In this document: in pieces, positions 11,710 to 27,484 of the stretch
Position numbering within the stretch: the first letter of the stretch is position 1
Layout: every line of letters begins with the position of its first letter
Source of the DNA: Chloroherpeton thalassium ATCC 35110
Lineage (GTDB): Bacteria > Bacteroidota > Chlorobiia > Chlorobiales > Chloroherpetonaceae
Direction of reading: 5' to 3'
DNA length: 64,000 nt
Assembly (NCBI RefSeq): GCF_000020525.1
Contig: NC_011026.1
Span: forward strand, 1,780,001 to 1,844,000
Program-made: the position numbers and the translations under genes
The notes under the pieces: model-generated
What the model was told of the DNA's origin: nothing
What the model saw: only the letters and a program-made list of their open reading frames with translations
The model's database searches: none

Positions 11710-11768
11710 ATTTTCGTGTGTTTAAGTTGCTTGATTTTTGAGAGTTGCTGATGGCGAACTTTTATGCT

Positions 11769-12199: not shown

Positions 12200-12856
12200 T
12201 TACTTGGTGGCAGAAGTCAAAATTTCGTCAATTTCTTTACTGACCTTGTCAATGCTCTGCGTGCCATCTACTTCCGCAGCCGTTCCTTTTTTCTTGTAGT
12301 AGTCAAGAACCGGCGCAGTGGTTTGATCGTAAATGGATAGGCGCTTTCTGATCGTTTCTTCCTTATCGTCCTCTCTGATGATTAAGTCTTCACCGGTCTC
12401 ATCGCATTTCCCTTCAACCTTCGGTGGATTGTAAACCACATGGTAAACTTTTCCGGTCGACGGAGCAATTCTTCTGCCGGAAAGGCGTGCCACAATTTCT
12501 TCGGCGTCTGCGGTCAGACTGATAACACAATCTATTGGAATCTCATATTTTTGAAGCAAGCGATCGAGCGCTTCGGCTTGCGGGACGGTTCTTGGAAAGC
12601 CATCAAGGATAAAGCCTTGCTCGCGGTTTTCTTGAACAGAAACGTACTCTTCGATCATGCCGATAATCACATCGTCAGGAACCAGTTCTCCTTTATCAAT
12701 GAATGATTTTGCCTTCAAACCGAGCTCAGTGCCTTGTTTAATGGCGCTGCGTAGCATATCGCCTGTGGAAATATGAGCAAGTTGATGTTTTTCAGAAAGG
12801 ATTTTTGCTTGAGTTCCTTTTCCAACTCCAGGTGGTCCAAAGAGAATAATTTTCAT
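12200..12856 (-). CDS. adk: Adenylate kinase
   Basis: A 218-residue phosphotransferase interconverting ATP, ADP and AMP in the cytoplasm. The P-loop GPPGVGKGTQ is at the N-terminus, DGFPRTVPQAEAL is the AMP-binding and signature region, and a long LID domain (about 120-165) is present. The LID lacks the four-cysteine zinc site found in many Gram-positive forms. The length is that of the long bacterial type. It is the last gene of a probable minus-strand run with the DUF1499-like gene, only six bases away, and rlmN. Confidence 0.97.
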   Translation of the reverse strand: MKIILFGPPGVGKGTQAKILSEKHQLAHISTGDMLRSAIKQGTELGLKAKSFIDKGELVPDDVIIGMIEEYVSVQENREQGFILDGFPRTVPQAEALDRLLQKYEIPIDCVISLTADAEEIVARLSGRRIAPSTGKVYHVVYNPPKVEGKCDETGEDLIIREDDKEETIRKRLSIYDQTTAPVLDYYKKKGTAAEVDGTQSIDKVSKEIDEILTSATK

Positions 12857-12862
12857 GATCTA

Positions 12863-13480
12863 TTATTTTTTGTTTTTTGACGCGAATGTCACCTTTATTT
12901 CTTTGCTTTTACCATTCGAGGGTTTCTCGGTTTTCGCAGCGGCCTCTTCTTGGCCTGGTGCTTTGATCGTTGTCGTCTCCACCTTTTGCTTTTTGGGTTC
13001 TTCCTTTGAAATAAAGGCTTTGCTGATAGACGGGTGAATAGGATTTTCGGATGTCGGGAAAAGTTCGTCCAACGCTAAAATAAGCATGGCAATAATGCGT
13101 TGGTTTTCGCCGAGGTCAGGTTGCCCGTTATCCAGATTCAAAGTAGACTTTACATTGACAATGGTTTCAGGCTGATTTTGTGCGTCCATTTCCTCGGTTA
13201 GCCAAATGCTCACATCAGCTTCTTTGATGAGCGAAAGTGGGGTGCGCACTTTGCATTTGATGACGGCAATATTTCCAAGATCTTTTTTCTTGGTGTCCAA
13301 GTCCCAACCAATCCATATATCAACTTTTTTCTGAATCGCTTCATAAATATCGTTCATTGGCGCTTTGTAGTGCCGTGTTTTTAGCTCATAAAACTCAGCG
13401 TTTTCAGTCGTTTCCGCTGAATTTTGGGTAAATGCGCTCACCGCTCTACGATAAACGATATCAAATATATTTCCTGACAT
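12863..13480 (-). CDS. Hypothetical protein with a DUF1499-like pattern
   Basis: A 205-residue protein with no signal peptide. The central part (about 50-140) contains a segment around VNVKSTLNLDNGQPDLG followed by ENQRIIAMLILAL, which resembles the end of DUF1499-type domains (a basic, glycine and aspartate motif followed by NxxRI); I consider this match weak. The last about 55 residues are low-complexity and rich in Lys, Glu, Ala and Thr, probably disordered. It lies six bases upstream of adk and 15 bases downstream of rlmN, so it is likely in one transcription unit with them. Function unknown. Confidence 0.65.
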   Translation of the reverse strand: MSGNIFDIVYRRAVSAFTQNSAETTENAEFYELKTRHYKAPMNDIYEAIQKKVDIWIGWDLDTKKKDLGNIAVIKCKVRTPLSLIKEADVSIWLTEEMDAQNQPETIVNVKSTLNLDNGQPDLGENQRIIAMLILALDELFPTSENPIHPSISKAFISKEEPKKQKVETTTIKAPGQEEAAAKTEKPSNGKSKEIKVTFASKNKK

Positions 13481-13495
13481 GAAATCAAACTATTT

Positions 13496-14605
13496 TTAGG
13501 TTGAATGACGACTCGTTTGAATTTTAGAAAACTTCTTTCCATGAACATGTTGAATGGCTAACTGGCCGCAAGCCGCTTGAATATCGGCTCCTCTACTTTT
13601 GCGAACGGTTACAGTTAATCCATGCTCAATACATTTTCTGATGAATGCCTGCTTGTGACCCTCAGGCGAGGGAAGATAATCAATATTATCTACTGAATTA
13701 TAATCAATCAAATTAATTTTGCAGTTAATTCCCTTGCAGAACTTGCTTAGCAAAATAGCGTCTTGCTCGGAGTCATTGATTTTGTGAATCAACGAATATT
13801 CGAACGTGATGGGTTGCTTGTAGGCTTGGTTGTATCTCGTAAGGATTGCTTTTAGCGTGGCTAAAGAATATTCTTTGGCAATTGGAATAAGTTCCTCACG
13901 AATAGCTTGGTGCGCTGAATGCAATGAAATGGCCAGTTTGCAGTTGATTCCCGTATCGATAAGGCGTTGGATGCCGGGAATAAATCCAACGGTAGAAACA
14001 GTGATTTTGCGTGTGGAAATTTGAAACGCATAATCTGGGTTCGTTAAAATCCGAATTGCGGCTAAGCAATTGTCGAAGTTCGCAAGCGGCTCGCCCATTC
14101 CCATAAACACGACATTCGTGATTTTCCCGCCACGTTGATCCCCAAGCCAGCGATTCACCCACAGCACTTGGTCTAAAATTTCGCCGATGGTTAAATTTCT
14201 GATAAAGCCCATGTAGCCAGTTGCGCAAAATTTGCAAGCAAATGCGCAGCCAACCTGCGATGAAATGCAAAGGGTGTTGCGCGATGTGCTATCACTTGGA
14301 ATGAAAACGCTTTCTATGCTTTGCTCGTCGCTGAGTCGGAATAGAAATTTGACCGTTTGCTCGGGTGTGATTTCGTGAGAAACTGTGTCGGCGTGTGGCT
14401 GAATAGAAGAAACCGTAAAGTGTTGGGAAAGCAAGGTTTGAAAGGATGCGCTCAAATTTTTCATCTGCGCGAAATCCGTGACGCCGTGTGCGTATATCCA
14501 GTGGAAAATTTGTTTGGCGCGAAAAGCAGGCTGCCCATAGGAATTGATCAACGCCATGAGCGCTTCAAGCGAGAGTGCTTTGATGTCGTGTTTAACTTCA
14601 TTCAT
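13496..14605 (-). CDS. rlmN: 23S rRNA (adenine-2503-C2) methyltransferase RlmN
   Basis: A 369-residue radical SAM enzyme that methylates C2 of A2503 in 23S rRNA and A37 of some tRNAs. The cluster-binding CX3CX2C motif is C120, C124 and C127 in GCAFACKFCATG. Downstream GMGEPLANFDN and LAISLHSA are family motifs. Cysteines of the methyl-transfer pair are expected near the C-terminus, and RGADIQAACGQL carries one of them. The length is typical. The upstream tRNA-Gln gene is on the same strand but separated from it by a terminator. Confidence 0.97.
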   Translation of the reverse strand: MNEVKHDIKALSLEALMALINSYGQPAFRAKQIFHWIYAHGVTDFAQMKNLSASFQTLLSQHFTVSSIQPHADTVSHEITPEQTVKFLFRLSDEQSIESVFIPSDSTSRNTLCISSQVGCAFACKFCATGYMGFIRNLTIGEILDQVLWVNRWLGDQRGGKITNVVFMGMGEPLANFDNCLAAIRILTNPDYAFQISTRKITVSTVGFIPGIQRLIDTGINCKLAISLHSAHQAIREELIPIAKEYSLATLKAILTRYNQAYKQPITFEYSLIHKINDSEQDAILLSKFCKGINCKINLIDYNSVDNIDYLPSPEGHKQAFIRKCIEHGLTVTVRKSRGADIQAACGQLAIQHVHGKKFSKIQTSRHST

Positions 14606-14670
14606 AAGCAGTTAGTCAATGGTCATGGCTTGAGTGAGCAGCAAAAGAATCGCGCCTGGCGTATGAGGCA

Positions 14671-14702
14671 AAAAAAAAGCCTGTTTTAAAAAACAGGCTT
14701 TA
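14671..14702 (-). terminator. Terminator of tRNA-Gln
   Basis: AAGCCTGTTT pairs with AAACAGGCTT and is followed on the minus strand by a run of T, just past the tRNA 3' end. Confidence 0.88.
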
Positions 14703-14705
14703 TCG

Positions 14706-14777
14706 CTGGGGCGGTAGGATTCGAACCTACGCGTGTCGGCTCCAAAGGCCGATGCCTTACCACTTGGCTACGCCCCA
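14706..14777 (-). tRNA. tRNA-Gln (anticodon UUG)
   Basis: Read on the minus strand, the gene folds into a full cloverleaf. The acceptor is TGGGGCG/CGCCCCA with the U1-A72 pair typical of tRNA-Gln. The D arm has GCC..GGC. The anticodon stem TCGGC/GCCGA surrounds the loop CTTTGGA (anticodon TTG). The T arm is GTAGG-TTCGAAT-CCTAC. The discriminator is G73, as in bacterial tRNA-Gln. The CCA end is not encoded; GCGA follows. Confidence 0.97.
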
Positions 14778-14911
14778 AAGTGGATTTGCCTAAATACCTT
14801 TTTTTGCAAGTAGTGAGGTAAACACATATTTTCGCTTAACCGGCGAATACGGTGGCAAATCGCACAAGAGCCACAAATATAAAAAAGCGTTTTTATAAAA
14901 AAAATATTTTC

Positions 14912-15571
14912 ATGGTAAAAGTCAAGATTTGTGGGTTAATAACCCAAGAGGATGCGATGTTGGCGTGCCAATATGGCGCAGATTTGTTAGGATTCAATTT
15001 TTACGAAAAAAGTCCGCGCTACATTTCACCAGCCAAAGCAGCTGAAATTATTAAAACGCTCCCTTCAAATGTCGCCTCGGTTGGCGTTTTTGTCGGAAAA
15101 GAGGCAAATGAAATCAATCAAATCTGTGAGGAAGCCATGATTGATATTGCCCAAATTCACGACGAAAGCCTTTGTGCCAAAGATTTTACAAAACTTCGTC
15201 CGAAAATTATCAAAGCATTTCGCGTTCAAAACACTTTCGACACGCGCGAGATTCGTCGTTTTTATGAGCAAACAGGCGTCAACACGTTTATTTTCGATGC
15301 TTTTCAAAAAGATTTATATGGCGGAACAGGAAAACGGTTGGATGTTGAATTGGCGCATAAAGTGTTTAAGGAAATTGAGGGTTTCGGCTACGGCTTTTTA
15401 GCGGGCGGTTTGAACGAAAAAAATGTTGAAACAACGGTTAGGTTGCTTAAACCGTATGGCGTTGATGTTGCAAGCGGAATTGAAAGCGAACCAGGAAAGA
15501 AAGCACACGATAAAATGGCGCTTTTCATTCGTGAGGCAAAAAAGTCGCTTTGCCTCGAACCTGGCTATTAG
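14912..15571 (+). CDS. trpF: Phosphoribosylanthranilate isomerase
   Basis: A 219-residue TIM-barrel enzyme of tryptophan synthesis, which performs the Amadori rearrangement of PRA to CdRP. The N-terminal KICGL provides the catalytic cysteine and DAFQKDLYGGTGKRLD the catalytic aspartate and phosphate-binding region. LAGGLNEKN and GVDVASGIESEPGKK are the phosphate-binding C-terminal strands. The frame is open 20 codons upstream, but the ATG at 14912 places the first beta strand at the usual position. No clear ribosome binding site is visible in the A/T-rich leader. No other trp gene is nearby. Confidence 0.95.
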   Translation: MVKVKICGLITQEDAMLACQYGADLLGFNFYEKSPRYISPAKAAEIIKTLPSNVASVGVFVGKEANEINQICEEAMIDIAQIHDESLCAKDFTKLRPKIIKAFRVQNTFDTREIRRFYEQTGVNTFIFDAFQKDLYGGTGKRLDVELAHKVFKEIEGFGYGFLAGGLNEKNVETTVRLLKPYGVDVASGIESEPGKKAHDKMALFIREAKKSLCLEPGY

Positions 15572-15723
15572 CCAACGGCATTGAGAAAAAACAACGGAGC
15601 AAATTTTTAGAGCAGGCTTTTATCTTGCGGGTTGTAACAGATTTGAAAAGCGTTTATTTCGCAACATGAGCCATTTAACAGCTTTTTATAAGCGTTAGGT
15701 GTTCAACTCAAGGGTAAAAAAAG

Positions 15724-17829
15724 ATGTCGTTTTTTTCAAAATTCTCGCTGAGAAATCGGATTTTTCTGTTAGTTGGGTCACTGCTTATTGGCTCAATTTT
15801 AATTATTTGGTTAGGTGTTTTTCCACATTATGAGAAATTGGTCATTCAGGAACGGATGACCATCATTTCCGAGCAGCAGCAATATGCGGTTGAAAATGCT
15901 GATAGGCAGCTTTCTTATTGGGCGGGAACTGTCCGATACCTAACGGAAACTTTGGCCTCGCGTCCAGAGGCATTTGAAAGCACGCTAAAAAACGAAATTG
16001 CGCTTAACCCGGATATTATTAAAGTGCGTGTGTTGGCGCTTAATACAAACGAAGAACTTGAAGCGCAAAACACCAACTATCCGCGCTTGAATTTTTCCCT
16101 TCCAAGTCTCGAATGGTATAAACTGAAAGCAATCGATGGGCTTGATATTGCTTACGTGCCAAAAAGCGATTCGCTGCCGGCTATTTTCACACTAAAGCAG
16201 CAGATTGAAATTGATGACACGCCCTTTTCGCTGAATTGTTTTTTTGACGCCAGCGCATTTCAAGAAGGGGTGAGCAATATTCCTATTGGAAAAGGACTAT
16301 TTGTTAGGATGCTGAGCCCGGGACGAAATTTGTTTGAAACAGAGCCTACCTTACAATTTCCAGATCTCAAAAATATTGGACAAGTTACATCGATTAAAGC
16401 CGTTGTGCATGGCGGCAGGAAATGGCAAGTTTTAATTGCGCCGTTTTCGCAAGCGCCGTTCGATTTACTTTTGGCTGTGCCGGAATCCTTAATCGCCCAG
16501 CCAGCCAAGCAGCTTTTGTTTTTTTCTTCGATGTTTGCCATTGGCATTGCGGTGTTGATGATTGGTGTTGGCTGGGCAGCGTCGCATCAGGTGACCAAGC
16601 CCGTAATGAAGTTGGCGGCGGCGGTCGAACCGATGAGCCAACTTGATTTCAGTCAGCCTATCAAAAAGCCTGAATTGCCGGAACTCATTTCCCTTTATGA
16701 AGTCATCGAAGCCATGCGCGGGTCGCTGGATCGGTATAAGAAACTCAATGTCGAAAAGTTGATTGTCGAGGAATGGAAAAACCGTTTTCTCATGACTTAT
16801 ACGCCCGATATGATCGCTATCGGCGACGAGAACGGAAAATTTACCTTCAAAAATAAGCGATTTTCCGAGCTGCTTCAAGAACTCCAACTTCCCGAAACCC
16901 TAACTAAAAATGATTTTTTTTCCATTCCTTCAATGGAAATTAACCGTGAGGTGCATCAAGAAGAAGAAATTAAAAGTTTTCATCTGAAAATGAGGCAAGT
17001 GGAGTTTTCGGTTGCGCCTGCAGAAACCATTTACCATTTTGCCTTACAAGATGTGGCGCTTTTTTCCGAGCAAAAAGAATCCAAAGGATTTTTGATGATT
17101 TTGCACGACCTAACAAATGAGCGCGATCTTGAGCGCATCAAATTGGAAACCCTTGGCATCATTGTTCATGAGCTGCGCAGCCCGTTGATGGGCATCATTG
17201 GATTTTCAGATCTCATGCTCTCGCAAGAATATGAACATGACACGCGCAAGCAATACTTGGAGGCTATTTATAAAAGTGGCTCAAAGTTGAGCGACCTTGT
17301 CGATCGGTTTCTCAATGTGCTGCGAATGGAGTCGGGGCAAATGGATATTCTCACTTCGCCCGTGCAGCTGATTCCGATTGTAGAATCGCTGGTTTTAAGC
17401 TTGGACGCGCAAGCGCAGAAAAAGTCCGTAAAGTTTGTGTGTACCTATGAATCCGAAATTCCAGAGATTTTGGCTTCGGAGGAGTTGATGCGGGAAGCCT
17501 TACAAAACCTGATGACAAATGCCATCAAGTACGGCGGAAAAAATAGAACCGTGGAGATAACTTTAAAGAGAGAAGATAATTTTGTTATATTTTCAATAAC
17601 TGACTACGGCTATGGCATTCCCCCTGAAGCGCAAGACAAATTATTTACGAAGTTTTACCGGGTAGAAAACGAAAAGACAAAGAACGAGAAAGGTACCGGG
17701 CTGGGGCTCGCTTATGTAAAAGAAATCGTGACGCGGCATCATGGAAAAATCACGTTGGAATCGCGCCCGGAAATTGGCTGTTGCTTCACCATAACCTTGC
17801 CAGTGGGAAATATGGCGAGCGAGAAATGA
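15724..17829 (+). CDS. Membrane sensor histidine kinase (orphan; first gene of kinase/FecR/PKD unit)
   Basis: A 701-residue kinase. It has an N-terminal transmembrane helix (about 14-35), an extracytoplasmic sensing region of about 220 residues, a second transmembrane helix (about 260-285), a HAMP linker (about 286-340) and a PAS-like region (about 350-460). The HisKA domain has His482 in HELRSPLMGIIGF, and the HATPase has N box NLMTNAIKYGG, DYGYGIPPEAQDKLF and GTGLGLAYVKE. The sensing region shows no family I recognise. No response regulator gene is adjacent. The next gene, a FecR-domain protein, starts 16 bases after the stop, so the three genes are probably one operon sensing and shaping the cell envelope (inference). 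Confidence 0.92.
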   Translation: MSFFSKFSLRNRIFLLVGSLLIGSILIIWLGVFPHYEKLVIQERMTIISEQQQYAVENADRQLSYWAGTVRYLTETLASRPEAFESTLKNEIALNPDIIKVRVLALNTNEELEAQNTNYPRLNFSLPSLEWYKLKAIDGLDIAYVPKSDSLPAIFTLKQQIEIDDTPFSLNCFFDASAFQEGVSNIPIGKGLFVRMLSPGRNLFETEPTLQFPDLKNIGQVTSIKAVVHGGRKWQVLIAPFSQAPFDLLLAVPESLIAQPAKQLLFFSSMFAIGIAVLMIGVGWAASHQVTKPVMKLAAAVEPMSQLDFSQPIKKPELPELISLYEVIEAMRGSLDRYKKLNVEKLIVEEWKNRFLMTYTPDMIAIGDENGKFTFKNKRFSELLQELQLPETLTKNDFFSIPSMEINREVHQEEEIKSFHLKMRQVEFSVAPAETIYHFALQDVALFSEQKESKGFLMILHDLTNERDLERIKLETLGIIVHELRSPLMGIIGFSDLMLSQEYEHDTRKQYLEAIYKSGSKLSDLVDRFLNVLRMESGQMDILTSPVQLIPIVESLVLSLDAQAQKKSVKFVCTYESEIPEILASEELMREALQNLMTNAIKYGGKNRTVEITLKREDNFVIFSITDYGYGIPPEAQDKLFTKFYRVENEKTKNEKGTGLGLAYVKEIVTRHHGKITLESRPEIGCCFTITLPVGNMASEK

Positions 17830-17845
17830 ATCGAATCACACCGAA

Positions 17846-19639
17846 ATGAAATACACGCCGTTTTTTGCAATCGTGCTTAGTGCAATCATTGCAATTTCAC
17901 CGATACAGACGGCTTATTCGCAATACAGCTCCGTGAAGACTTTTTTTTCGGGTGAGTTGCAATCGGTCGCGAAAAAAATCACGGGAGACCCATCTACCTG
18001 GCCGATGGTAATTGCGGAGGCGCATCGCTACGAATCGTCCAATCAATTTTATCTTTCCACAACTGCTTATTCGCGTTTGCTGCGCTTTGCCGAGCAGCAC
18101 AAAAAAGTGCAGGCCGCAAGGGAAAAAATGAATGAACTCATCAAAACCGGCGCGGTGCTTTTTGCCGAACTTGAACTAAAGGATGCCAAAACAGGGCTGT
18201 CCAATTATCATTTGGCGCTTCAAAAGGGCGCTTACGACGATGCGTTGGCTAATGGCAAAAATTTTGTTCAACAAGTTAGCGATGTGGAATCCACGCTCAA
18301 TCGCAATCGGTTGGAGGCCATTTCCGCAAAATTGGAAGAAAAAATCGGTAAGGTTCACAAACGAGAAGGCTTGTTAGGAAGTTGGTTAATGGCAAGCGAA
18401 GGTGATTTTTTTGAAGAATCCGACGGTGTGAAAACCTACGACAATAGCTCAGCAACGCTGGCTTTTGTTGATGGCAGCTATGTGTTTGTTGAAGCTGCTA
18501 GCACCGCTATTGTTAGGAAAGCTCGCCTTGATAAGTTGAACCAAGCGGTTAAAACCGACATTTCGCTTATCAATGGCAACTTGCTTGCCAAGCTTTCGCG
18601 CAAGGCGCAAGACGCCGGCGGTTTTCATCTTAGCACGCAAAGCTCGGATATTGTGGTGCAATCCGGCAAATTTTGGGCAAGCTCCGTGCAAAGCGGGTCG
18701 CGAATTTCCAACTACGACGGCCTCTTGAAAGTGCGTGCGGGACGAGTTGAAATTTCCTTGAAGAAGAACGAAGGCACCGTGGTTTTGAAAGGTAAACCGC
18801 CCTTGCCGCCGGTCGAGCTTTTGCCTGCGCCGCGCCTGAAATGGGCAGGGTTGGACACGGTGTATTTCGGATCGAATTTTCTGATAGAATGGAATCCGCT
18901 TCAAAATACCGAAACCTATCAAATTGAAATCAGCGACACGCGCAACTTCGGTCGGGTGATTCGGCGATATAACACGCCCAAACTCTCTTATGAAGTGCGC
19001 AACCTGACCGACGCCATGCTGTTTATTCGTATTCACGGCCTCGATCGATATGGCTTGCGCGGTATTGATAGTCAAACCTATCGGTTGCTTCGCAGTCCGG
19101 ATACTGAGCCGCCTTACTTGCGCCTAACCAGTCATCGAATTCAAAACGGCGTCATTTACACGCTGAAAAATGAAATTCAAATCGAAGGTGAAACCGAATC
19201 CGGCGCCGCGCTTTACCATGAAGGAAAAACGGTTGCCGTAGATCAAAATGGGCGTTTTTCGCTTGCGCTGCCGATTGCAAGGGAAAAGCAAATGCTTGCA
19301 TTAGAAGCAAAAGATCAAGCTGGCAATCGGCAAAACCTAACGTTGGAAGTTGTGAAATTCAATTTGGAACGGATCGGCACAATTCGCACCAACGCGACGC
19401 TTCGGCAAAACACGCTGTTTGTTTCGAACATGCCGCTTCAGATTTATGGAAAAGCGTATCCCTATCAAAAAATTATGATAAGCTACGGGAAAAGTGACTA
19501 CGAAGTAAACTCTGACGCCGATGGCAATTGGGCGATCGCGATTCAGGACTATGAACAAGCCGGCCTAACAATTAGCATCTTGTCGCCGGACGACGGCGTG
19601 CCAGTCACGATAAAATCATTTTCGGTCAAAAAAACATGA
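17846..19639 (+). CDS. Secreted FecR-domain protein with Ig/Fn3-like C-terminal part
   Basis: A 597-residue protein with a signal peptide (cleavage probably after QTAYSQ near residue 26). Residues about 30-165 are helical, with TPR-like or coiled character. Residues about 180-310 match the FecR-type beta domain (NSSATLAFVDGSYVFVEAAS, then VRAGRVEISLKKNEG), which elsewhere is the periplasmic signal-receiving domain of FecR anti-sigma factors. The C-terminal half has Fn3-like (FLIEWNPLQNTETYQIEI) and Ig-like beta domains. There is no cytoplasmic anti-sigma part and no transmembrane helix, so it is not a classical FecR regulator. Its stop overlaps the start of the PKD gene (ATGA), implying translational coupling. 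Confidence 0.82.
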   Translation: MKYTPFFAIVLSAIIAISPIQTAYSQYSSVKTFFSGELQSVAKKITGDPSTWPMVIAEAHRYESSNQFYLSTTAYSRLLRFAEQHKKVQAAREKMNELIKTGAVLFAELELKDAKTGLSNYHLALQKGAYDDALANGKNFVQQVSDVESTLNRNRLEAISAKLEEKIGKVHKREGLLGSWLMASEGDFFEESDGVKTYDNSSATLAFVDGSYVFVEAASTAIVRKARLDKLNQAVKTDISLINGNLLAKLSRKAQDAGGFHLSTQSSDIVVQSGKFWASSVQSGSRISNYDGLLKVRAGRVEISLKKNEGTVVLKGKPPLPPVELLPAPRLKWAGLDTVYFGSNFLIEWNPLQNTETYQIEISDTRNFGRVIRRYNTPKLSYEVRNLTDAMLFIRIHGLDRYGLRGIDSQTYRLLRSPDTEPPYLRLTSHRIQNGVIYTLKNEIQIEGETESGAALYHEGKTVAVDQNGRFSLALPIAREKQMLALEAKDQAGNRQNLTLEVVKFNLERIGTIRTNATLRQNTLFVSNMPLQIYGKAYPYQKIMISYGKSDYEVNSDADGNWAIAIQDYEQAGLTISILSPDDGVPVTIKSFSVKKT

Positions 19640-22600
19640 TGAAACTATTTTTTAGAGCATCTACATTTTTATTTGTTTTGTTTTTCCTAACGGTAACGCT
19701 TTATGCTCAAGATGTATTTTTGTCCATTTCCGGCCAAAAAGCTTCAAACCTGAGCGGCGATACGCGCCACCAGCACGATTATTGGCTTAGACCGTCAAAA
19801 AGCGCCGGAAGCGCCATTTTGCGCGTTTTTGATGCGGGCGTGAGTTGGGGAACAGCCGACGTCGTCTATGGAACAGTGGAAACTCAAACGACTTTTGCGG
19901 TTTATCCGGTCTCAGCGATTTATGATGTGTTTGGCGATAGTTTATCGGAAAAAATGCGCGTTTATGGAAATCCTAACTATTCCCTGACAGCTCAGGATGA
20001 ACCGGTTTTCCGCGAGCGCTGGGCGACGATTGGCGAGCTAAATCCGGTCGGTTCTCCTAACGGCTATATTCTGCGTGTTACCACGAATGATGGAAACGAT
20101 GTGAATGCCTTTAAAATCATGGTAGCTAAATCGGGAAACATCAACACGCCGAGCGAGGATTGGGTGGTGGTTGCCTCTGACCTAACGCTTGGTCTTTATA
20201 ACTTTCCGCCCAATTTGGAAGTGCAACTTCAGCCATTGCGAGCATCTGAAGCGCCGCCCGAATTTGACTTTCTTGGCGAAGAAGCGGCTATTTTGCGATT
20301 GAAAGATGATTTTGGGCACGCCACAAACCTAACAAACTTGGGAGATTTTTGGCAGCCAGCACGAGCCGCTACGGAAAATCATTGGGGGCTTTCCATTTCG
20401 CGAATTGGCCAAAACAACCATTTTTCGGTTTTCGGCAAAGAAAAAAAGGTTTTTTGGATCTTGAAGCCGAATATTGTTAAAACGCCCGAGCTGCCGAAAG
20501 TTCAGGTGCGCCAGGTGCCCGGCAGCGATTGCGGCAGTGTTCGCCTAACGCTGATCGGTTATCAACGAAATGTTGAAACCGTGCGCGAGCCGGTTTGGGT
20601 TTTTGAAAATGAAAAAATAGTTGGAGATTCGGCGGAAATTTATTTTGGCAAGCCTGACGATTACATGGCTGAAGTTTGGATTCCTAACGAAGGCATGTAT
20701 TTCCCCAAATATTGGATTCATCCGTTTCAGGTGCACATCAACGCGCCGCCAAAGGCTGTTATTTCGTACGACGTGCTCAGTGCGGCGCCTGGCCAGCAGA
20801 CTTCGTTTTCTGCAAGAAATTCGAGTGATGCCGAAGATCGAAACTTATCCTATCGGTGGTTTGTGGAAGGAACGCTTCGTGGTAAGGAATCGGTTTTCAA
20901 TTTTTCAAGCAAAACGCCTGGAAAGTATTCCATCATCCTAACGGTAACGGACAATGCGACGAACTCTTTTTGCACCTCAGCGAGTGACTCGGTAATCCTA
21001 ACGGTTAATTCGCAACCTTACACCGAAATTCGATTCCCGGAAGAATTTGCACGAAAAGAGACCGTTGTGTTTGTCGCTGAAAAAGATAGTGATCCAGATG
21101 CCGATAAGCTTTCTTACAAATGGCAAGGTTCCGGCGTGCAAAGCGACGACGAGGAGCGAGCCGTGGAAATTCGCCACGAGCGGCATGGTGTTTATTCCGT
21201 TTCCCAAACGGTAGACGATAATCACGGCCTTGCAAATTCGAAATACACAAAAACCGTTAGTTACCGCGTGAATGCCGAGCCGGAGCCGCGTTTTTCCCTG
21301 CCTGAACAAGCTGCACCGAACGATGTTCTAAAGCTTTCTGCTGCCAGCACCACCGACGCAGATGATAAAGAGCTTGATTTTGCTTGGCAATCCTCCGATT
21401 GGCAATCGTTTAAGGGACGCGATATCGATATTTCGTTTTTAAATCCAGGCGATTATAAGGTCACCCTAACCGTTGATGATGGACATAATGTTTCAAATTC
21501 TGTTCAAATCCTAACGAAAAATATTCACATCAATGCGCCGCCTTTTCCAATGATCACGGCACAAAATAGTTCAACCATTGCGCGGCAAGTGTTTTCCGCA
21601 AAATATTCCTCCGACAGTGACAGCGAAGACTTGCGCTACTTCTGGGACTTTGGCGACGGCGAAAAAGATCGTGGCTTGGAAGTGGTGCACACATTTCAAA
21701 AAAGCGGGATTTATACTATTACCCTAACGGTTGATGATCAAGAAAAACAAACCAACAGCGTGCAGAAAACCACACATCGTTTTCGTTTGCATCGCTATCC
21801 AGTTGCGAAATTTGATTTGCCGAAATACGCTGAGCCAAAGCACGCTTTCGCAGTGGATGCGAGCGCGAGCTACGCGCCGGATGGCAATATTCGCCAGTAC
21901 AAATGGTTTGTGGATAACCGTTTTGCGGCAACGGGGAAAACGGCAAACTTGCAAATTTCCACGCCGGGCGATCACATTGTTAGTTTGTTAGTTACAGATG
22001 ACTCTGGCTTTGAGGATGCCAAAAGCCTGGCGACGGAAAAAATTCATGTGAATTTTGAACCGTTGCCGCGTTGGGAGGTTTCTTTGCCGGTGGCTGCGCC
22101 GGAGCAGTGGATTGCGTTCGATGCGGGCGATTCTTACGATTTGGACGGGCGCATTCAAAATTACACTTGGACATTTTCTGACGGTGCGGTCGAAAGCGGT
22201 CGAAAAGTTACGAGAAAGTTTTCTGAGTCAGGCAAGGTGGATTTTACCCTAACGGTTGATGATGGGACAGGTTTTGAGAACGCCGTGCAAAACACCACAG
22301 GCTCAGTGCTGATTAATAGCACGCCGATTATTGTGGCGCCAAAAACGATTCGCTCAAACTCGCGACGCGTGAAACTGGACGCTTCGGAAAGCTATGATGT
22401 TGATAGGCAAGCGCTCAATTTTGAGTGGATTTTGCCTGACGGTTCAAAACGCCATGAGGCTGCATTTTATTGGGATGCACCAAAAACGGGGGGCGTTTAT
22501 TTTGTCAGTTTAAACGTCGATGATGGAAAAAATTTGAAAAATAGCCGAGCAAGCCACACGGTGAAGGTGCTGGTAAACAGGCCGCCGGTCGCGGTTACGG

Positions 22601-24396
22601 ACACGCTTGTTAGGGCTTGCACCGGCCAAACGATTTTGTTTAACGGTTCGAGATCCTTCGATCCTGACGGCGACGCGCTGAAAGTCAGCTGGGATTTCGG
22701 CGACGGCACAACCTCTGGCGAAACAGATCCGGCGCATGTGTATCGAAAACCAGGCGAATACAGCGTGGTAATTAAGCTCGACGACGGCTTTGCGCCTGAG
22801 CCGACTTTGGCTGTCATTCCGGTGATTATTGGTAGTTCGCCGCTGGCGATTCAGTCCTTTGCCGATACCACGGTTTGCGTTCAAACCATGCTGGATTTTG
22901 ATGGCAGCCAAAGCGAATATCCGTCGGGCATTATTGGCTCGTATGCCTGGGATTTTGGCGACGGGGAAACGGCGCTCGGCAAAACCGTGCAACATGCGTT
23001 TAGCAAGCCGGGCACGTATAAAGTGATCCTAACGGTTGTGAGCGCGGAAGGCAGTTTCACAACAACGGGATGCAGCAAAATTGGCCAATCATCTTCTACG
23101 GTGCGCGTGATTGCGGGGCCGGTTGCGGATTTCAACGCGAAAAATTGGGTTGCAATCGGCGATACGGTTTATTTGGATGCGAGCCCATCCACGACAACAA
23201 CGCGCATTCTTTCCGCCGATTGGCGCATTTTGGCTGATAAAGAAGGCAAGGGCGACTCGGCAACGGCAAAGTTGGGAACGCGCGTTTTGCATGTGTTTCA
23301 AAAACCGGGACTTTATCCGGTTATCCTAACGATTCGTGATGATAATCAGGCGTCGTGCAATACCTCAAGCACGGTGAAAAATATTCGCGTCAATGCTGCG
23401 CCGGAGCTTAGCTGGCGCGTGCCGAAAGCGGTGGCGCTTGGCGAGCAAGTGCTGCTCGACGCCGCGCGTTCCCTTGACCCTGACGGTCTTATCACACATT
23501 ACAATTGGACGCTCGACGACCAAATGATCGGTGAAACGCCGGCTGTCATCAAGTCATTTTCGGAGGCGGGCGAGCATGAATTAAAGCTCACCATTACCGA
23601 CAACTCGCCAACGCGAACGAAATCCGTTTCAGCGAAAAGCTCTATTTTCGTGAATACGTCGCCGAAGCCGACGTTTGTTTTGCCGGAAAAAATTTATGAA
23701 TATGAACTTCTCGAGCTTCAAGCCAAGCCGGAAGTCGATGCCGATGGCGATCGGTTGAGTTTTTCATGGCAAGTGGACGGCTCGCCTTACGGTTATGACG
23801 AAACCCGTTTTACTGGCGGGCGACACACGCTTCAACTGGTGGCAGACGATCGGCGCGGGCTAAGCAATTCCAAAGATTCTATTTTTACAGAAATTCATGT
23901 CATTCCGTCGCCGGAATTGGAGGCGGATTTTCCTGAACACATTGTTGTGGGGCAAACGCTTTCCTCGGAGCGCGATTGGAAGCGCGAGTCAATCGGCTTT
24001 GTGGTGGATGGGCAGCTTCAGCCGACCTACACGCTGGCGCAAACCGGGCGTGTGGCCGTAAAGTTGGGCTGGGCGCCAAAAGGCATCATTTTGAAAGATA
24101 GCTTCCGTTACCTGACAGTTTGGGAGCCGCTGCGCTTTACCGAAACGCCAGCGCCAATGGTTTTGGTCTGGAATCCGGCAAACCCAACTGTGATTTTGAG
24201 CGTGCCGGGTGTGAATCGTCCAGCAAGCAAAATGCCACTTTTCCGTTGGAAGCGCGGCGCTATGGTGCTGGGCTACGGGGAAACCCAAGAAGTGCCGCTT
24301 TACAAAGGGACAAATACCTTTACGGTTGAAGCCTATGAACCGGATGTGGCTGGCTCAAAAACGGTGTCGGTTGAAATAGTCGTAAAAACGCAATAA
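19636..24396 (+). CDS. Giant secreted protein with about twelve PKD-like repeats
   Basis: A 1586-residue protein with a signal peptide (first 25 residues, ending TLYAQ). About 350 residues of unrecognised N-terminal sequence are followed by about twelve tandem PKD-like immunoglobulin folds of 80-100 residues (about 365-1420). Hallmarks are WDFGDGE or WDFGDGT, HTFQKSGIYTITLTVDD, and the linkers NAPP and NTSPKP. A C-terminal beta-rich region of about 150 residues follows. PKD arrays are typical of extracellular adhesive or structural proteins. Unlike the three T9SS cargoes in this window it has no C-terminal sorting domain, so it may stay in the periplasm or use another route. It overlaps the FecR gene by four bases. 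Confidence 0.88.
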   Translation: MMKLFFRASTFLFVLFFLTVTLYAQDVFLSISGQKASNLSGDTRHQHDYWLRPSKSAGSAILRVFDAGVSWGTADVVYGTVETQTTFAVYPVSAIYDVFGDSLSEKMRVYGNPNYSLTAQDEPVFRERWATIGELNPVGSPNGYILRVTTNDGNDVNAFKIMVAKSGNINTPSEDWVVVASDLTLGLYNFPPNLEVQLQPLRASEAPPEFDFLGEEAAILRLKDDFGHATNLTNLGDFWQPARAATENHWGLSISRIGQNNHFSVFGKEKKVFWILKPNIVKTPELPKVQVRQVPGSDCGSVRLTLIGYQRNVETVREPVWVFENEKIVGDSAEIYFGKPDDYMAEVWIPNEGMYFPKYWIHPFQVHINAPPKAVISYDVLSAAPGQQTSFSARNSSDAEDRNLSYRWFVEGTLRGKESVFNFSSKTPGKYSIILTVTDNATNSFCTSASDSVILTVNSQPYTEIRFPEEFARKETVVFVAEKDSDPDADKLSYKWQGSGVQSDDEERAVEIRHERHGVYSVSQTVDDNHGLANSKYTKTVSYRVNAEPEPRFSLPEQAAPNDVLKLSAASTTDADDKELDFAWQSSDWQSFKGRDIDISFLNPGDYKVTLTVDDGHNVSNSVQILTKNIHINAPPFPMITAQNSSTIARQVFSAKYSSDSDSEDLRYFWDFGDGEKDRGLEVVHTFQKSGIYTITLTVDDQEKQTNSVQKTTHRFRLHRYPVAKFDLPKYAEPKHAFAVDASASYAPDGNIRQYKWFVDNRFAATGKTANLQISTPGDHIVSLLVTDDSGFEDAKSLATEKIHVNFEPLPRWEVSLPVAAPEQWIAFDAGDSYDLDGRIQNYTWTFSDGAVESGRKVTRKFSESGKVDFTLTVDDGTGFENAVQNTTGSVLINSTPIIVAPKTIRSNSRRVKLDASESYDVDRQALNFEWILPDGSKRHEAAFYWDAPKTGGVYFVSLNVDDGKNLKNSRASHTVKVLVNRPPVAVTDTLVRACTGQTILFNGSRSFDPDGDALKVSWDFGDGTTSGETDPAHVYRKPGEYSVVIKLDDGFAPEPTLAVIPVIIGSSPLAIQSFADTTVCVQTMLDFDGSQSEYPSGIIGSYAWDFGDGETALGKTVQHAFSKPGTYKVILTVVSAEGSFTTTGCSKIGQSSSTVRVIAGPVADFNAKNWVAIGDTVYLDASPSTTTTRILSADWRILADKEGKGDSATAKLGTRVLHVFQKPGLYPVILTIRDDNQASCNTSSTVKNIRVNAAPELSWRVPKAVALGEQVLLDAARSLDPDGLITHYNWTLDDQMIGETPAVIKSFSEAGEHELKLTITDNSPTRTKSVSAKSSIFVNTSPKPTFVLPEKIYEYELLELQAKPEVDADGDRLSFSWQVDGSPYGYDETRFTGGRHTLQLVADDRRGLSNSKDSIFTEIHVIPSPELEADFPEHIVVGQTLSSERDWKRESIGFVVDGQLQPTYTLAQTGRVAVKLGWAPKGIILKDSFRYLTVWEPLRFTETPAPMVLVWNPANPTVILSVPGVNRPASKMPLFRWKRGAMVLGYGETQEVPLYKGTNTFTVEAYEPDVAGSKTVSVEIVVKTQ

Positions 24397-24584
24397 TGAA
24401 CATTGGATGAGCAGCCGCGCTCTTTTTCTTGAGCGTTCTTCGCTGACAGATGGATTATCATCGCGGCGCGCGTCGGGATTTTCGTGAAGTAAAAACTGTG
24501 AATTGTTCAGCAGCTGCATTAAATTAAAAGTTTCTTGCTTTCTTTCACGCGTTGCGCTACGGCGCAAACATAAATCTGGCTTGC

Positions 24585-25931
24585 ATGAATCTGAAGTTTT
24601 TGCTTTCCCATACGCTCGAGGCTTATGAACTCCTTTGCTCGGAAGCCCGTCCAGCGGATGCGGTGCTTTCCGAATACCTTCGCGCACGAAAATATCTCGG
24701 TTCTCACGATCGTAGTTTTATCAGCGAAACCATTTATAATTTGCTCAGAAAGGAGCTTTTCTTAGAAGCCGTTGTTCAAAAATCCGCCAAAGGCAGCTCG
24801 CGCCCAAAATCTTTTAAAAATGTTGGGGTGCTGTATCTCTTTCTTTTATCTGATATGGACATTGAGCGCCGGGCACTGGTTGATGTTTTTGGGGAAATGG
24901 CTTCGCTTGCTGAGCCTTATTTTGACGCGTTGGATGCGGCATATCAAGCATTTACAGATACGACAAAATCGAAATCCACGCCTATTTTATTTTTGGAAAA
25001 ACATGCCTTTCCGGAATGGATGACTGAAGAACTGCTAAAAGAATTTGACGAACCCACACTTCAGCTCATTTACGAATCTTTGAACAAGCCGGCGCCGTTG
25101 GCATTGCGAGCCAATTCGCTGAAAATTTCACGAGAAGCCTTGCAGAAAAAATTGGAGAAAGAAAGCATTCCTACTTTTTTGGGAAAACTTTCTGCAGATG
25201 CTCTGATTTGTAAGGGGCGCCGCCGAATTATTCAATCTCAATGCTATCAAGACGGTCTTTGTGAGATTCAGGATGAAGGCAGCCAGCTGATTTCGCGCTT
25301 GCTTGATCCCAAACCGAAAGACACGGTTTTGGATGCTTGTGCGGGCGGCGGTGGCAAAACCTTGCATCTTGCAGCGCTGATGAAAAATAAAGGGGCAATT
25401 TTTGCTTATGATGTCAATCCAAAGCGTTTTGGCAACATTCGCCAGCGCATTAAGCGTTCTGGCCAGCAAAATATTCGCTTACTTGATAGTCCTGAAAAGC
25501 TGGCGCAGTTTAAAAACGATTGGCATGAGAAAATCGATTGCCTCTTGATTGATGCGCCTTGTACGGGTTCTGGTACAGTAAGGCGAAATCCTGATTTGAA
25601 AAAACGCCTAACAAAAGAAGCGCTTCAGCGCATTACCGCGCAACAAGCTGAAATTTTGGAGGAATTTTCGGTTTTGCTAAAACCTAACGGCAAAATGCTT
25701 TACGCAACCTGTTCACTTTTTCGTGATGAAAATGAAGGTCAAATCGAAAGCTTCTTGGAAAAGCATCCCGATTTCCGATTAGAGCCCATATCTTCGATTT
25801 TAGAAAATGAGCGACATGCAGCGCATGCAGCCTTGCAAAATAAGCGATTTGAAGGTGAAACTTACCTGAAGCTTCGCCCCGACAAAGACAACACCGACGG
25901 CTTTTTCGCTGCCATTTTTCGCAAACAGTAA
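24585..25931 (+). CDS. rsmB: RsmB/NOP2-Sun family RNA (cytosine-C5) methyltransferase
   Basis: About 448 residues. The N-terminal helical NusB-like region (about 1-140) is typical of RsmB. The C-terminal Rossmann domain has the SAM-binding segment VLDACAGGGGKTLHLA, motif IV DAPCTGSGTVRRNPDLK and motif VI LYATCSLF, which carries the catalytic cysteine. The family methylates C967 of 16S rRNA in E. coli; related members modify other sites, so the exact position here is uncertain. The frame is open eleven codons upstream, but ATG 24585 (MNLKFLL) gives the natural beginning. It is separated from the PKD gene by 188 bases with no gene. Confidence 0.88.
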   Translation: MNLKFLLSHTLEAYELLCSEARPADAVLSEYLRARKYLGSHDRSFISETIYNLLRKELFLEAVVQKSAKGSSRPKSFKNVGVLYLFLLSDMDIERRALVDVFGEMASLAEPYFDALDAAYQAFTDTTKSKSTPILFLEKHAFPEWMTEELLKEFDEPTLQLIYESLNKPAPLALRANSLKISREALQKKLEKESIPTFLGKLSADALICKGRRRIIQSQCYQDGLCEIQDEGSQLISRLLDPKPKDTVLDACAGGGGKTLHLAALMKNKGAIFAYDVNPKRFGNIRQRIKRSGQQNIRLLDSPEKLAQFKNDWHEKIDCLLIDAPCTGSGTVRRNPDLKKRLTKEALQRITAQQAEILEEFSVLLKPNGKMLYATCSLFRDENEGQIESFLEKHPDFRLEPISSILENERHAAHAALQNKRFEGETYLKLRPDKDNTDGFFAAIFRKQ

Positions 25932-25973
25932 TCGCGCGATGGCTTTTTTTATTTTTCGTATCGAACGAACAAT

Positions 25974-26003
25974 AAAAAAGGGCGAACTCCTGCGTTCGCC
26001 CTT
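25974..26003 (-). terminator. Terminator of the DUF285 T9SS-cargo gene
   Basis: AAGGGCGAAC pairs with GTTCGCCCTT. On the minus strand it is followed by a T-run. It lies 20 bases past the minus-strand stop and may also serve rsmB. The same GGGCGAAC/GTTCGCCC stem ends the GLUG gene near 34.24 kb. Confidence 0.88.
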
Positions 26004-26023
26004 ACATAAAATTAAATGGCATT

Positions 26024-27484
26024 TTACTTCAAGAGCATCATCTTCTTGGTTTCGGAATAGCCATTGGCGCTAATTCGATAGAAATAAACGCCGCTGTTGA
26101 GATTTTTCCCTTCAAACGTAATCGGCGTGTTTTCTCCGGCATTTCCGTTCAGAATTTCTTTATAAACCACGCGCCCCAAAATGTCGAACACTTGAAAAGC
26201 AACCTTTCCTGCTTGCTTCAAGCTAAAATTAATGGTGGTGCTTGGGTTGAACGGGTTCGGGTAGTTTTGCTCTAAAGTGTAAGCTGTCGCTTTGGTGTCG
26301 CTGACATAGTCTTCGGTGATGGTAACACTCACGCTTTCTGAATACTCGTGAATGTCGCCAGAATTATCGATGCTGGTCAATTTATAAGTGTATGTTTCCC
26401 AAAGATTTACATCTGAATCAGTGAAGCTGTAGTTTGTTTCGCTGCTGGTTGTGCCTTGGCCTTTCAAGGCATCGGTATTTTGATAAGAAGCGATTTCCTC
26501 GCCGTTGCGGTAAAGCAAAAATCCGGCATTTCCTGCTTCCGATGCCGTTTGCCAATTGAGCCTAACACCGCTCTCAATCGATGTCCCCGAGAAGCTAGAT
26601 AATGAAACAGGTAATGGCGCATCAATCTGGCCGCCGTCAGTTATGCCCCAATAGTAGTCATCAATAAGGCTTTGGCGAGCAGTAGCCGCGGCGCCAGTTG
26701 AATATTGGCTGTTTCCGCCGTGAAAAATCACCTCGCTTTGGACGGTTTGCGCTGCCCAGCCGATAAGCAACGCATCATAATTCGCCGTAGAGAGCGTTGC
26801 CCCGTAAAACATATCATCCATTTCTTCTACAGCGCTGATGTTCCAACCGCCGATATTTTGGTCAAATGCGGTGGCATTGTAAAACATCTCCACCATGTTC
26901 ATAGCGCCGCTGACATTCCAACCGCTGATGTTTTGGTTAAATGAAGCCGCACCGCTAAACATACTTTGCATATCGAGGACGGCGCTAACATCCCAACTTT
27001 CAAGATTCGTAATGGATGCCTGATCAATATTCATAAATGTGTAGTTTAGGTTGTTCACCGTCGAAGGTAGCACTGTTGGGACAGAGGTAAGATTGTCAGC
27101 GTTGTTAAAAGCGCCTGAAATCGAGGTAAATCCGGTTAAGCTTCCAAAACTATTGACTTGTGCTAAATATTCAACGCCTGCCCAGCTACCGTTAGAGCCC
27201 TTTCCAAATTGGGTTAAAGTTCCAGAAATAGTGACCGTTTTTTGACCGGTGGTTGTGTATTCGTGGCTTTTGTCGCCCGGTGCCATATAACTGTCACTAT
27301 CACCATCTCCCCAGACGACATTGACATCCACAGAGCCATACAGCGGTAATTCTACGGTGGCAGGAACAGATGTAATGTTGAAGATAAATTCCATCGGTTG
27401 CGCAAAGACCGTAGAGGTGTTTAACCAAAGCAATCCTAAAAGGAAAACGATTCCTTTTAGCTTGGTGGGTAAAGTAATTTTCAT
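26024..27484 (-). CDS. Secreted DUF285 (BspA-type) surface protein with T9SS sorting domain
   Basis: About 486 residues. The signal peptide is MKITLPTKLKGIVFLLGLLW followed by LNTSTVFA. The central part (about 120-260) has DUF285-type repeats with the pattern MxxMFxxAxxFNQNIxxWNVS, as in BspA-like and Mycoplasma surface proteins. The next about 110 residues are an Fn3-like module beginning LPVSLSSFSG. The last about 85 are a T9SS C-terminal sorting domain (LEQNYPNPFNPSTTINF, then FQVFDILGRVVY and GVYFYRI). The product is expected to be exported by T9SS and attached at, or released from, the cell surface. The start was moved 15 codons in from the longest frame to place the signal peptide at the N-terminus. 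Confidence 0.88.
   Translation of the reverse strand: MKITLPTKLKGIVFLLGLLWLNTSTVFAQPMEFIFNITSVPATVELPLYGSVDVNVVWGDGDSDSYMAPGDKSHEYTTTGQKTVTISGTLTQFGKGSNGSWAGVEYLAQVNSFGSLTGFTSISGAFNNADNLTSVPTVLPSTVNNLNYTFMNIDQASITNLESWDVSAVLDMQSMFSGAASFNQNISGWNVSGAMNMVEMFYNATAFDQNIGGWNISAVEEMDDMFYGATLSTANYDALLIGWAAQTVQSEVIFHGGNSQYSTGAAATARQSLIDDYYWGITDGGQIDAPLPVSLSSFSGTSIESGVRLNWQTASEAGNAGFLLYRNGEEIASYQNTDALKGQGTTSSETNYSFTDSDVNLWETYTYKLTSIDNSGDIHEYSESVSVTITEDYVSDTKATAYTLEQNYPNPFNPSTTINFSLKQAGKVAFQVFDILGRVVYKEILNGNAGENTPITFEGKNLNSGVYFYRISANGYSETKKMMLLK

What the first reader, a model, noticed from the sequence alone, without database searches (positions are those of the whole stretch)
15660..26580. Local excess of the hexamer CCTAAC / GTTAGG
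By eye I count about 30 occurrences on either strand in this 11-kb stretch, where about 5 are expected by chance. The rest of the window has about 14 in 53 kb, at or below expectation. In the PKD gene, Leu-Thr is repeatedly encoded as CTA-ACG (for example near 20938, 20997, 21721, 22250, 23028). Elsewhere Val-Arg is encoded as GTT-AGG (16300, 18511, 22608). The bias is therefore not fully explained by the protein repeats, because both orientations and non-repeat genes (kinase, FecR, RsmB-like) share it. It could be a DNA-uptake-like or recombination-associated word, or a codon-pair quirk of recently acquired DNA.
Basis: seen in the sequence. Interest (0 to 1): 0.5.

Follow-up and report, generated by a model that had tools for sequence, protein, structure and literature searches.

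The report
Operon written around one DNA word
In one genome related to green sulfur bacteria, a few whole gene blocks, most extremely the one in this window, choose their synonymous codons so as to spell the six-letter word CCTAAC on either DNA strand wherever the proteins allow it; this is neither chance nor a codon habit of foreign DNA, and what reads the word is not known.

Summary
The window has 42 CCTAAC/GTTAGG: 30 in 15660-26580, 12 elsewhere. It is the most locally clustered of 1731 hexamers. Synonymous shuffling of six genes expects 2.5, observed 31; a codon-pair model of four dense blocks expects 7, observed 88.

The word fills one block of five same-strand genes, 14852-25931 (trpF, histidine kinase, FecR, PKD, RsmB). 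Of 54 dipeptide positions that could spell it, 30 do; the sampled genome averages 8%. The block ranks first of 313 units. Both strands and all permitted frames are used. Codon usage explains 2% of word density. Other dense blocks include the men operon (15 copies; none in 12 kb of the syntenic relative). The near-word CCTATC rises with it. Partial samples of two relatives show nothing comparable.

Best guess (0.35): sites for a DNA-binding factor acting along whole transcription units; main rival (0.3): an uptake or recombination word. The strand-block link rests on four or five blocks (P 0.0005); outside four of them it is not detectable. No trans-acting factor was found.

The parts
14852..25931 (+). 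Word-dense block of five same-strand genes; 31 CCTAAC/GTTAGG in 11,080 bp (2.8/kb); 30 of 54 eligible dipeptide positions spell the word
   Evidence: edges
14852..15571 (+). trpF (phosphoribosylanthranilate isomerase); 2 antisense words, 2 of 2 eligible positions
   Evidence: PF00697 1.2e-37
15724..17829 (+). sensor histidine kinase; 5 words, 5 of 10 eligible positions
   Evidence: HisKA and HATPase_c
17846..19639 (+). FecR-domain protein; 5 words, 5 of 8 eligible positions
   Evidence: PF04773 5.8e-07
19636..24396 (+). multi-PKD protein, 1586 aa; 16 words (15 sense, 1 antisense), 16 of 31 eligible positions
   Evidence: PF18911 with 11 matched stretches
24552..25931 (+). RsmB/F-like rRNA methyltransferase (ORF from a TTG; an ATG at 24586 may be the real start); 2 words, 2 of 3 eligible positions
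   Evidence: PF01189 1.7e-49
15694..15699 (-). the one copy in a gap inside the block (between trpF and the kinase)
14986..25688 (.). the 31 copies of the block: GTTAGG at 14986, 15437, 15694, 15810, 16303, 18373, 18512, 22609; CCTAAC at 15939, 16899, 17109, 19123, 19336, 19564, 19686, 19972, 20056, 20181, 20328, 20544, 20683, 20937, 20997, 21465, 21510, 21723, 22248, 23028, 23325, 25607, 25683
14676..14777 (-). upstream limit: tRNA-Gln (14705-14777, minus strand) followed by a minus-strand terminator-like hairpin (14701-14676, 11 pairs); no CCTAAC in the 4 kb outside this edge
25978..26003 (-). downstream limit: 10-pair terminator-like hairpin of the convergent minus-strand gene; 1 CCTAAC in the 4 kb outside this edge

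Best explanation
CCTAAC (read GTTAGG on the other strand, with weaker variants, above all CCTATC) is the recognition word of a sequence-specific DNA-binding factor of this lineage that acts along whole transcription units, for example as a coating or silencing nucleoid protein or an elongation roadblock. Selection has shifted synonymous codons towards the word throughout the controlled gene blocks. Shown: a double-stranded-DNA word, filled in at permissive synonymous positions, in blocks of genes with native codon usage, in this genome and not in the samples of two relatives. Suggested, on four or five blocks: that the block is a same-strand unit such as a transcription unit. Inferred, with no direct evidence: that a protein reads it, and what it does.
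For: Both strands and all permitted frames are used. In four dense blocks against sparse genes the word takes xLT 48 of 84 vs 110 of 1329, PN 8 of 23 vs 44 of 665, xLG 19 of 61 vs 119 of 1617, VR 13 of 50 vs 37 of 1029. Of 262 units, the 13 chosen on sense words alone have antisense use 33 of 140, the others 134 of 2103. Tolerance looks like protein recognition: CCTATC 41 vs 9.9, CCTTAC, CCTGAC and CCTCAC mildly raised (z 2.5 each), no clear rise for changes at positions 1, 2 and 6. The best directon-level correlates of CCTAAC among 2009 masked hexamers are CCTATC (0.54) and CCTTAC (0.43). Density is shared by same-strand neighbours with a gap under 30 (1.08, 95% 0.47-1.84), not by divergent ones (-0.06, -0.23 to 0.11). 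CCTAAC ranks 1 of 2013 hexamers for sharing between same-strand neighbours. Five patches delimited without regard to strand (all with 15 or more sites) have 0.96 of coding bases on one strand, random placements 0.75, P 0.0005. CCTAAC density falls at all eight edges of the four blocks.
Against: Leaving out pairs inside the four dense blocks, same-strand and opposite-strand neighbours do not differ (0.17 vs 0.13, p 0.34). Singly, none of the five patches is significantly one-stranded (P 0.06-0.28). Three of the eight block edges are not strand switches but same-strand gaps of about 685, 171 and 85 bases, the last within operon range. Density is a continuum (gamma-Poisson fits better than two classes). 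Divergent, promoter-bearing gaps are not richer than other gaps (0.57 vs 0.64-0.69 per kb). Dense blocks share no evident function. No binding protein was identified and no expression data were available.
Confidence: 0.35

Rival explanations
1. An uptake or recombination word. The word is favoured because DNA carrying it is preferentially taken up and recombined; clusters arise because fragments with several copies are favoured, or because whole word-rich segments were imported from a word-saturated sister lineage.
For: 616 and 617 copies on the two strands; present in coding and non-coding DNA; limited by protein constraint; weak excess also in sparse genes (319 vs 172 expected, summed over frames). 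ComEC and DprA families are present. A paper on uptake words notes that simultaneous binding of several copies would favour clustering in some regions (PMC1939737, passages).
Against: Density drops within about a gene at block edges, and the densest patches are mostly one-stranded, which random fragments would not give. A 6-base word is short for selective uptake. ComEC is found in 10 and DprA in 11 of 14 control genomes, so they discriminate little. No word-rich relative was seen: none of the 295 other genomes of the phylum sample exceeds 0.4 per kb, and 80 MenB loci, the part kept of 584, reach at most 0.71 per kb.
Confidence: 0.3
2. A DNA-modification or repair by-product, like the model proposed for cyanobacterial HIP1: methylation or mismatch repair at near-words creates the word, more often in some blocks.
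For: A precedent exists for iterated words tied to methyltransferases (PMC4390886, abstract). An Eco57I-type methylase domain lies at L006:16828-18033.
Against: No Vsr-family match. No evident reason for gene-block limits.
Confidence: 0.1
3. Codon or protein artefact: Leu-Thr-rich PKD repeats, codon-pair bias, expression level, or foreign codon usage.
For: Leu-Thr supplies 12 of the 16 PKD copies. Before AC, CTA is raised even without the preceding C (13% in sparse, 27% in dense genes, against 3-4% elsewhere), so a codon-pair habit contributes.
Against: Codon-pair-conditioned null 7.1, maximum 15 in 150, against 88; R2 2% on ten codon-usage axes; block without PKD 14 of 23; antisense words need different codons and rise too; LT is hardly more enriched than TL in dense genes (1.38 vs 1.31).
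Confidence: 0.03
4. Horizontally acquired islands from a donor rich in CCTAAC.
For: The kinase has its best matches in another family (G002, G005, G009) and only a distant one in the same-family genome G001; one dense patch is a Mu-like prophage region; dense genes lean to the GC-rich side.
Against: menD is nearest to G001 and the men operon is syntenic there, with 0 words in 12 kb; thrC (5 of 10 positions) and, less clearly, trpC and priA are dense; codon usage of dense genes is not set apart; homologous kinase-FecR-PKD operons have 2, 7 and 2 words in 16-18 kb.
Confidence: 0.07

Closest known systems
DNA uptake sequences of Neisseriaceae and Pasteurellaceae (DUS/USS)
   Same: Word in hundreds to thousands of copies, both orientations, inside genes, variants tolerated
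   Different: Six bases only; here very patchy by gene block. PMC1939737 (passages) cites earlier work for significant even spacing of uptake words and itself finds them less even than a compaction role needs; PMC2346458 (abstract) reports an orientation bias and, in Pasteurellaceae, a bias to gene ends. No biased uptake is known here.
HIP1 (GCGATCGC) of cyanobacteria
   Same: Short word iterated at high density
   Different: HIP1 is palindromic and linked to known methyltransferases (PMC4390886, abstract); CCTAAC is not palindromic and is concentrated in blocks
Xenogeneic silencers (H-NS, Lsr2, MvaT)
   Same: Works-like comparison only: a factor covering long stretches of DNA including genes
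   Different: Those bind AT-rich regions (PMC4466236, start of abstract in the listing); here the word is exact and its directon density does not follow GC (r 0.04); no silencer identified
Chi and other strand-polar motifs (recalled)
   Same: Short over-represented word
   Different: Equal numbers on the two strands of the contig (616, 617); leading and lagging strands were not separated

Membership tests
DNA uptake sequence | strong over-representation beyond codon-aware expectation | tested here: met
DNA uptake sequence | both orientations, coding and non-coding | tested here: met
DNA uptake sequence | spread over the genome without strong clustering | tested here: not met
DNA uptake sequence | DNA carrying it is preferentially taken up | not testable with these tools
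   competence families ComEC and DprA present, which is not specific
HIP-like methylation word | palindromic word | tested here: not met
   CCTAAC and GTTAGG differ
HIP-like methylation word | methyltransferase of that specificity in the genome | not testable with these tools
   an Eco57I-type methylase domain was seen in passing; specificity unknown
Vsr-type repair-made word | Vsr gene present and precursor words depleted | tested here: not met
Genomic island signature | atypical codon usage and absence from relatives | tested here: not met
   codon usage; men operon shared with G001; the prophage patch is an exception by content
Transcription-unit-wide recognition code | density shared within and not between transcription units | tested here: inconclusive
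   supported in the densest blocks, not detectable outside four of them
Transcription-unit-wide recognition code | a protein that binds the word | not tested
   none identified

The most novel reading that the evidence does not exclude
A bacterial operon-body code: a short double-stranded DNA word written by synonymous codon choice along entire transcription units, marking them for a factor that acts on the whole unit rather than at its promoter.
Probability: 0.27. Interest if true: 0.87.

Novelty: new variant of a known kind. Interest (0 to 1): 0.62.

Why it matters
The iterated genomic words I know of are spread over the genome or polar along the replichores. A word that fills more than half of the positions open to it in one gene block and hardly any next door implies an unknown force on synonymous sites at the level of gene blocks. 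If it marks transcription units, codon choice carries a DNA-level signal unrelated to translation; if it is an uptake word, it is a strongly clustered case. Either reading can be tested directly with strains, a methylome, a transcriptome and a pull-down.

Tried and rejected
PKD repeats as the cause: rejected, 14 of 23 eligible positions without PKD. Markov and codon-pair artefact: rejected as main cause. Codon class: R2 2%. Longer consensus: flanks carry only a weak preference for G/A then not T. Integron attC core (GTTRRRY, recalled): considered because GTTAGG fits, rejected by free flanks and position inside large genes. Helical or fixed spacing: none seen (a period-3 component, R 0.24 against 0.11 by chance, is put down to codons). 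Position inside the block: roughly uniform. Amino acids at word sites: 123 of 245 residue comparisons identical to relatives, background 47%. Gaps between genes have 0.57-0.69 copies per kb against 0.40 in genes overall, so the word is somewhat commoner between genes; inside the four blocks the gaps (3 in 1.26 kb) match the genes. Chromosome position: use of eligible positions by 200-kb bin runs from 3% to 17%, lowest at 0.4-1.0 Mb, not explained. Same signal in relatives: CCTAAC ranks 160 and 482 in 400 kb each of G001 and G009. Another over-dispersed word, ATGACA, proved to be part of a dispersed repeat. Plasmid search with FecR: two records at 26% identity. Literature: nine searches; nothing in the listings (some cut at 8 of 17 or 98 papers) describes this word or pattern; no other search was made.

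Caveats on numbers: genes are my own ORF calls (longest ORF, 100 aa or more, overlaps removed greedily); transcription units are same-strand runs with gaps up to 160 bases (500), not mapped transcripts. The sample is 1.23 of 3.29 Mb; the stretches in 130-190, 300-340, 360-390, 420-440 and 2335-2355 kb and the window with its flanks were chosen for sites already seen or their surroundings, the others mostly on a 60-kb grid. In the 48 stretches not so chosen (960 kb, 353 sites) CCTAAC falls to rank 25 of 1941 hexamers for over-dispersion (rank 4 of 1983 in the full sample), but unit heterogeneity stays above the null (chi2/df 1.72, null maximum 1.45 in 5000) and CCTATC still rises with it (2.21 vs 0.94 per bin), while CCTTAC and CCTTGC do not clearly. 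The four dense blocks were selected on the word itself and cut from same-strand runs; I trimmed one word-free end gene off the 180-kb block, and menF and the downstream genes off the men block, so fold values inside them are inflated. The chance of 0.0002 for four one-stranded blocks is for that reason too optimistic; one search repeats it with strand-blind patches. The independent tests are the cross-strand, cross-word and strand-blind ones.
Full report
1. The count. The window holds 42 CCTAAC/GTTAGG, 30 of them in 15660-26580 (24 forward, 6 reverse) and 12 elsewhere. The region's expectation is 2.0 by an order-1 and 1.7 by an order-2 Markov model, 5.4 by order 3 and 18.2 by order 4, where the word feeds its own estimate. 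Comparing region with rest, CCTAAC is the most enriched hexamer (30 vs 12, ratio 11.7, p 1e-14); the next, CGTTAG, overlaps it. In a scan of hexamers for their best 10.9-kb cluster it is first of 1731. When the codons of each of six genes are shuffled among synonymous positions, 2.5 copies are expected and at most 9 appear in 1000 rounds, against 31.

2. The anatomy. The dense stretch is one block of five plus-strand genes, 14852-25931: trpF, a sensor histidine kinase, a FecR-domain protein, a protein with 11 matched PKD stretches and an RsmB/F-like methyltransferase. Upstream lie a minus-strand tRNA-Gln with a hairpin terminator and minus-strand genes; downstream a convergent minus-strand gene with its own hairpin. 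CCTAAC counts in the 4 kb outside and inside the upstream edge are 0 and 10, and at the downstream edge 1 and 6. The numbers of promoter-like and terminator-like matches are near those of shuffled sequence, so that scan cannot show whether the five genes form one transcript.

3. Genome context. The window is positions 1780001-1844000 of a single 3,293,456-base contig; I recall this as the size of Chloroherpeton thalassium, and the nearest MenB loci include Chlorobiaceae assemblies. The genome has 616 forward and 617 reverse copies. I read 1.23 Mb of it (and the window; 533 sites). Sites are patchy: other dense stretches are 139639-152345 (33 copies; molybdopterin oxidoreductase, lipoate ligases, LipS2-like), 180386-185134 (HpnN/MMPL-type transporter, LolA-like), and the men operon 2364518-2372069 (15 copies). 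A Mu-like prophage region at 316-325 kb is also dense.

4. It is a word in DNA, not a codon habit. The proteins allow CCTAAC at Pro-Asn and at Leu-Thr after a codon that can end in C, and GTTAGG at Val-Arg and at Leu-Gly after a codon that can end in G. In the four densest blocks the word takes 8 of 23, 48 of 84, 13 of 50 and 19 of 61 of these; in sparse genes 44 of 665, 110 of 1329, 37 of 1029 and 119 of 1617. For Leu between a C and AC, CTA is chosen in 48 of 59 cases in dense blocks and in 29% of 384 in sparse genes. Without AC after it CTA is 3-4%; with AC but no C before it CTA is 27% (of 30) in dense and 13% in sparse genes, so a milder codon-pair habit lies underneath. The dipeptides are only modestly enriched in dense blocks (LT 1.38 against TL 1.31, LG 1.01, VR 1.34, PN 1.16), so most copies reflect synonymous choice. 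Residues at word sites are about as conserved as the rest (123 of 245, background 47%). A model that keeps protein and genome codon-pair habits expects 7.1 copies (maximum 15 of 150) against 88. Of 262 units, the 13 selected on sense copies alone carry antisense copies at 33 of 140, the others at 134 of 2103; the 9 selected on antisense alone carry sense copies at 52 of 122, the others 156 of 1717.

5. Near-words. In dense blocks CCTATC is 41 against 9.9 expected and CCTTGC 46 against 22.7; CCTTAC, CCTGAC and CCTCAC are mildly raised (z 2.5 each); changes at positions 1, 2 and 6 are not clearly so. Among 2009 hexamers counted after masking CCTAAC, the best directon-level correlates are CCTATC (0.54) and CCTTAC (0.43), while GC content correlates at 0.04. 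In stretches not chosen for sites, CCTATC still doubles where CCTAAC is dense; CCTTAC and CCTTGC do not clearly.

6. Native genes. Ten codon-usage axes explain 2% of word density; the 21 dense genes tested lie all over the codon-usage range, with a lean to high GC. MenD is nearest to the same-family genome G001 (52%), where the men operon is syntenic but has no copy in 12 kb. The kinase-FecR-PKD operon is syntenic in three genomes of another family with 2, 7 and 2 copies per 16-18 kb. So the word was most likely gained in this lineage. The same unbiased scan in 400 kb each of G001 and G009 finds nothing like it (CCTAAC ranks 160 and 482; best other words z 5.3 and 3.6, against 10.2 here). Those samples are a third of the one taken here, so weaker signals could be missed. 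None of the 295 other genomes of the phylum sample has more than 0.4 copies per kb.

7. Is the unit the transcription unit? Adjacent genes share CCTAAC density when on the same strand with a gap under 30 bases (1.08, 0.47 to 1.84), less with wider gaps (0.41, 0.58, and 0.13 beyond 400), not when divergent (-0.06, -0.23 to 0.11), weakly when convergent (0.30, 0.08 to 0.56); four control word sets stay at 0.20 or less for gaps under 30, though one reaches 0.81 (-0.10 to 1.94) for gaps over 400. Over all distances same-strand pairs exceed opposite-strand pairs (0.66 vs 0.13, p 0.004), but when pairs inside the four densest blocks are removed the difference is gone (0.17 vs 0.13, p 0.34). The case therefore rests on few blocks. 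Five patches delimited without regard to strand, those with 15 or more sites, have 0.96 of their coding bases on one strand against 0.75 for random placements (P 0.0005; singly P 0.06 to 0.28). Of the eight edges of the four blocks five are strand switches and three are same-strand gaps. Unit heterogeneity as such is firm: 313 units, chi2/df 2.4; without the six most extreme 1.62 against a null maximum of 1.30; in stretches not chosen for sites 1.72 against 1.45. Density is a continuum: a gamma-Poisson fits better than two classes.

8. Reading. A double-stranded, orientation-neutral, variant-tolerant word under synonymous selection at block level fits the recognition site of a DNA-binding factor that acts along whole gene blocks (0.35). 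An uptake or recombination word is the main rival (0.3): competence families are present and cooperative uptake could cluster copies, but sharp limits at gene-block edges are not expected. Modification or repair is less likely (0.1). Codon artefact (0.03) and foreign DNA (0.07) are unlikely as main causes. About 0.15 is left for causes not thought of.

9. Known or not. It is not filed as an uptake sequence: one defining feature, genome-wide spread without clustering, is not met and biased uptake is untested. It is not a HIP-like palindrome. Nine literature searches brought no description of it in what they listed. I call it a new variant of a known kind, the iterated genomic word, with an open chance of something categorically new.

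Noticed in passing
L005:8000-15000 (genome 318-325 kb): Mu-like prophage region (MuA-like transposase 12512-14704 minus, an ORF at 11121-12011 minus beside it) is word-dense, while the neighbouring ORFs at L005:1217-6519 have no CCTAAC.
   Followed up: partly
L005:10800-12440 and many places in the sampled genome: Dispersed repeat with core TCAG[A/C]ATGACA and its complement, several copies in a row between genes here; it makes ATGACA over-dispersed.
   Followed up: partly
sampled genome, genes outside dense blocks: CTA is chosen at 29% for Leu between C and AC, 13% before AC without the C, 3-4% elsewhere: a weak genome-wide pull to the word on top of a codon-pair habit.
   Followed up: yes
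sampled genome: CCTAGC is almost absent (0 in patches, 6 elsewhere); palindromes such as CGGCCG (7 vs 312 expected), TCCGGA (21 vs 343), CCGCGG and ATGCAT are strongly depleted, suggesting restriction pressure.
   Followed up: no
L006:16828-18033: Eco57I/TaqI-type methylase with specificity domain, inside a unit with no word in 29 eligible positions; its recognition site is unknown and could be compared with CCTAAC.
   Followed up: no
window:31971-34037: GLUG gene with a type IX secretion signal holds 2 CCTAAC and 4 CCTATC in 2.1 kb, a second, weaker word-rich gene in the window.
   Followed up: partly
sampled genome: CCTAAG (126 copies, up to 12 in one 4-kb bin) and AGCCCC (second in the same-strand-neighbour scan) are also over-dispersed.
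   Followed up: no
L073 (G001:C69:1-12000): In the same-family genome an RsmB homologue (47%) lies next to the men operon; here RsmB sits in the window block, a different dense block from men.
   Followed up: no
genome 400-1000 kb: Use of eligible positions for the word is lowest here (3-5% per 200-kb bin) and higher in most other bins; not explained.
   Followed up: no
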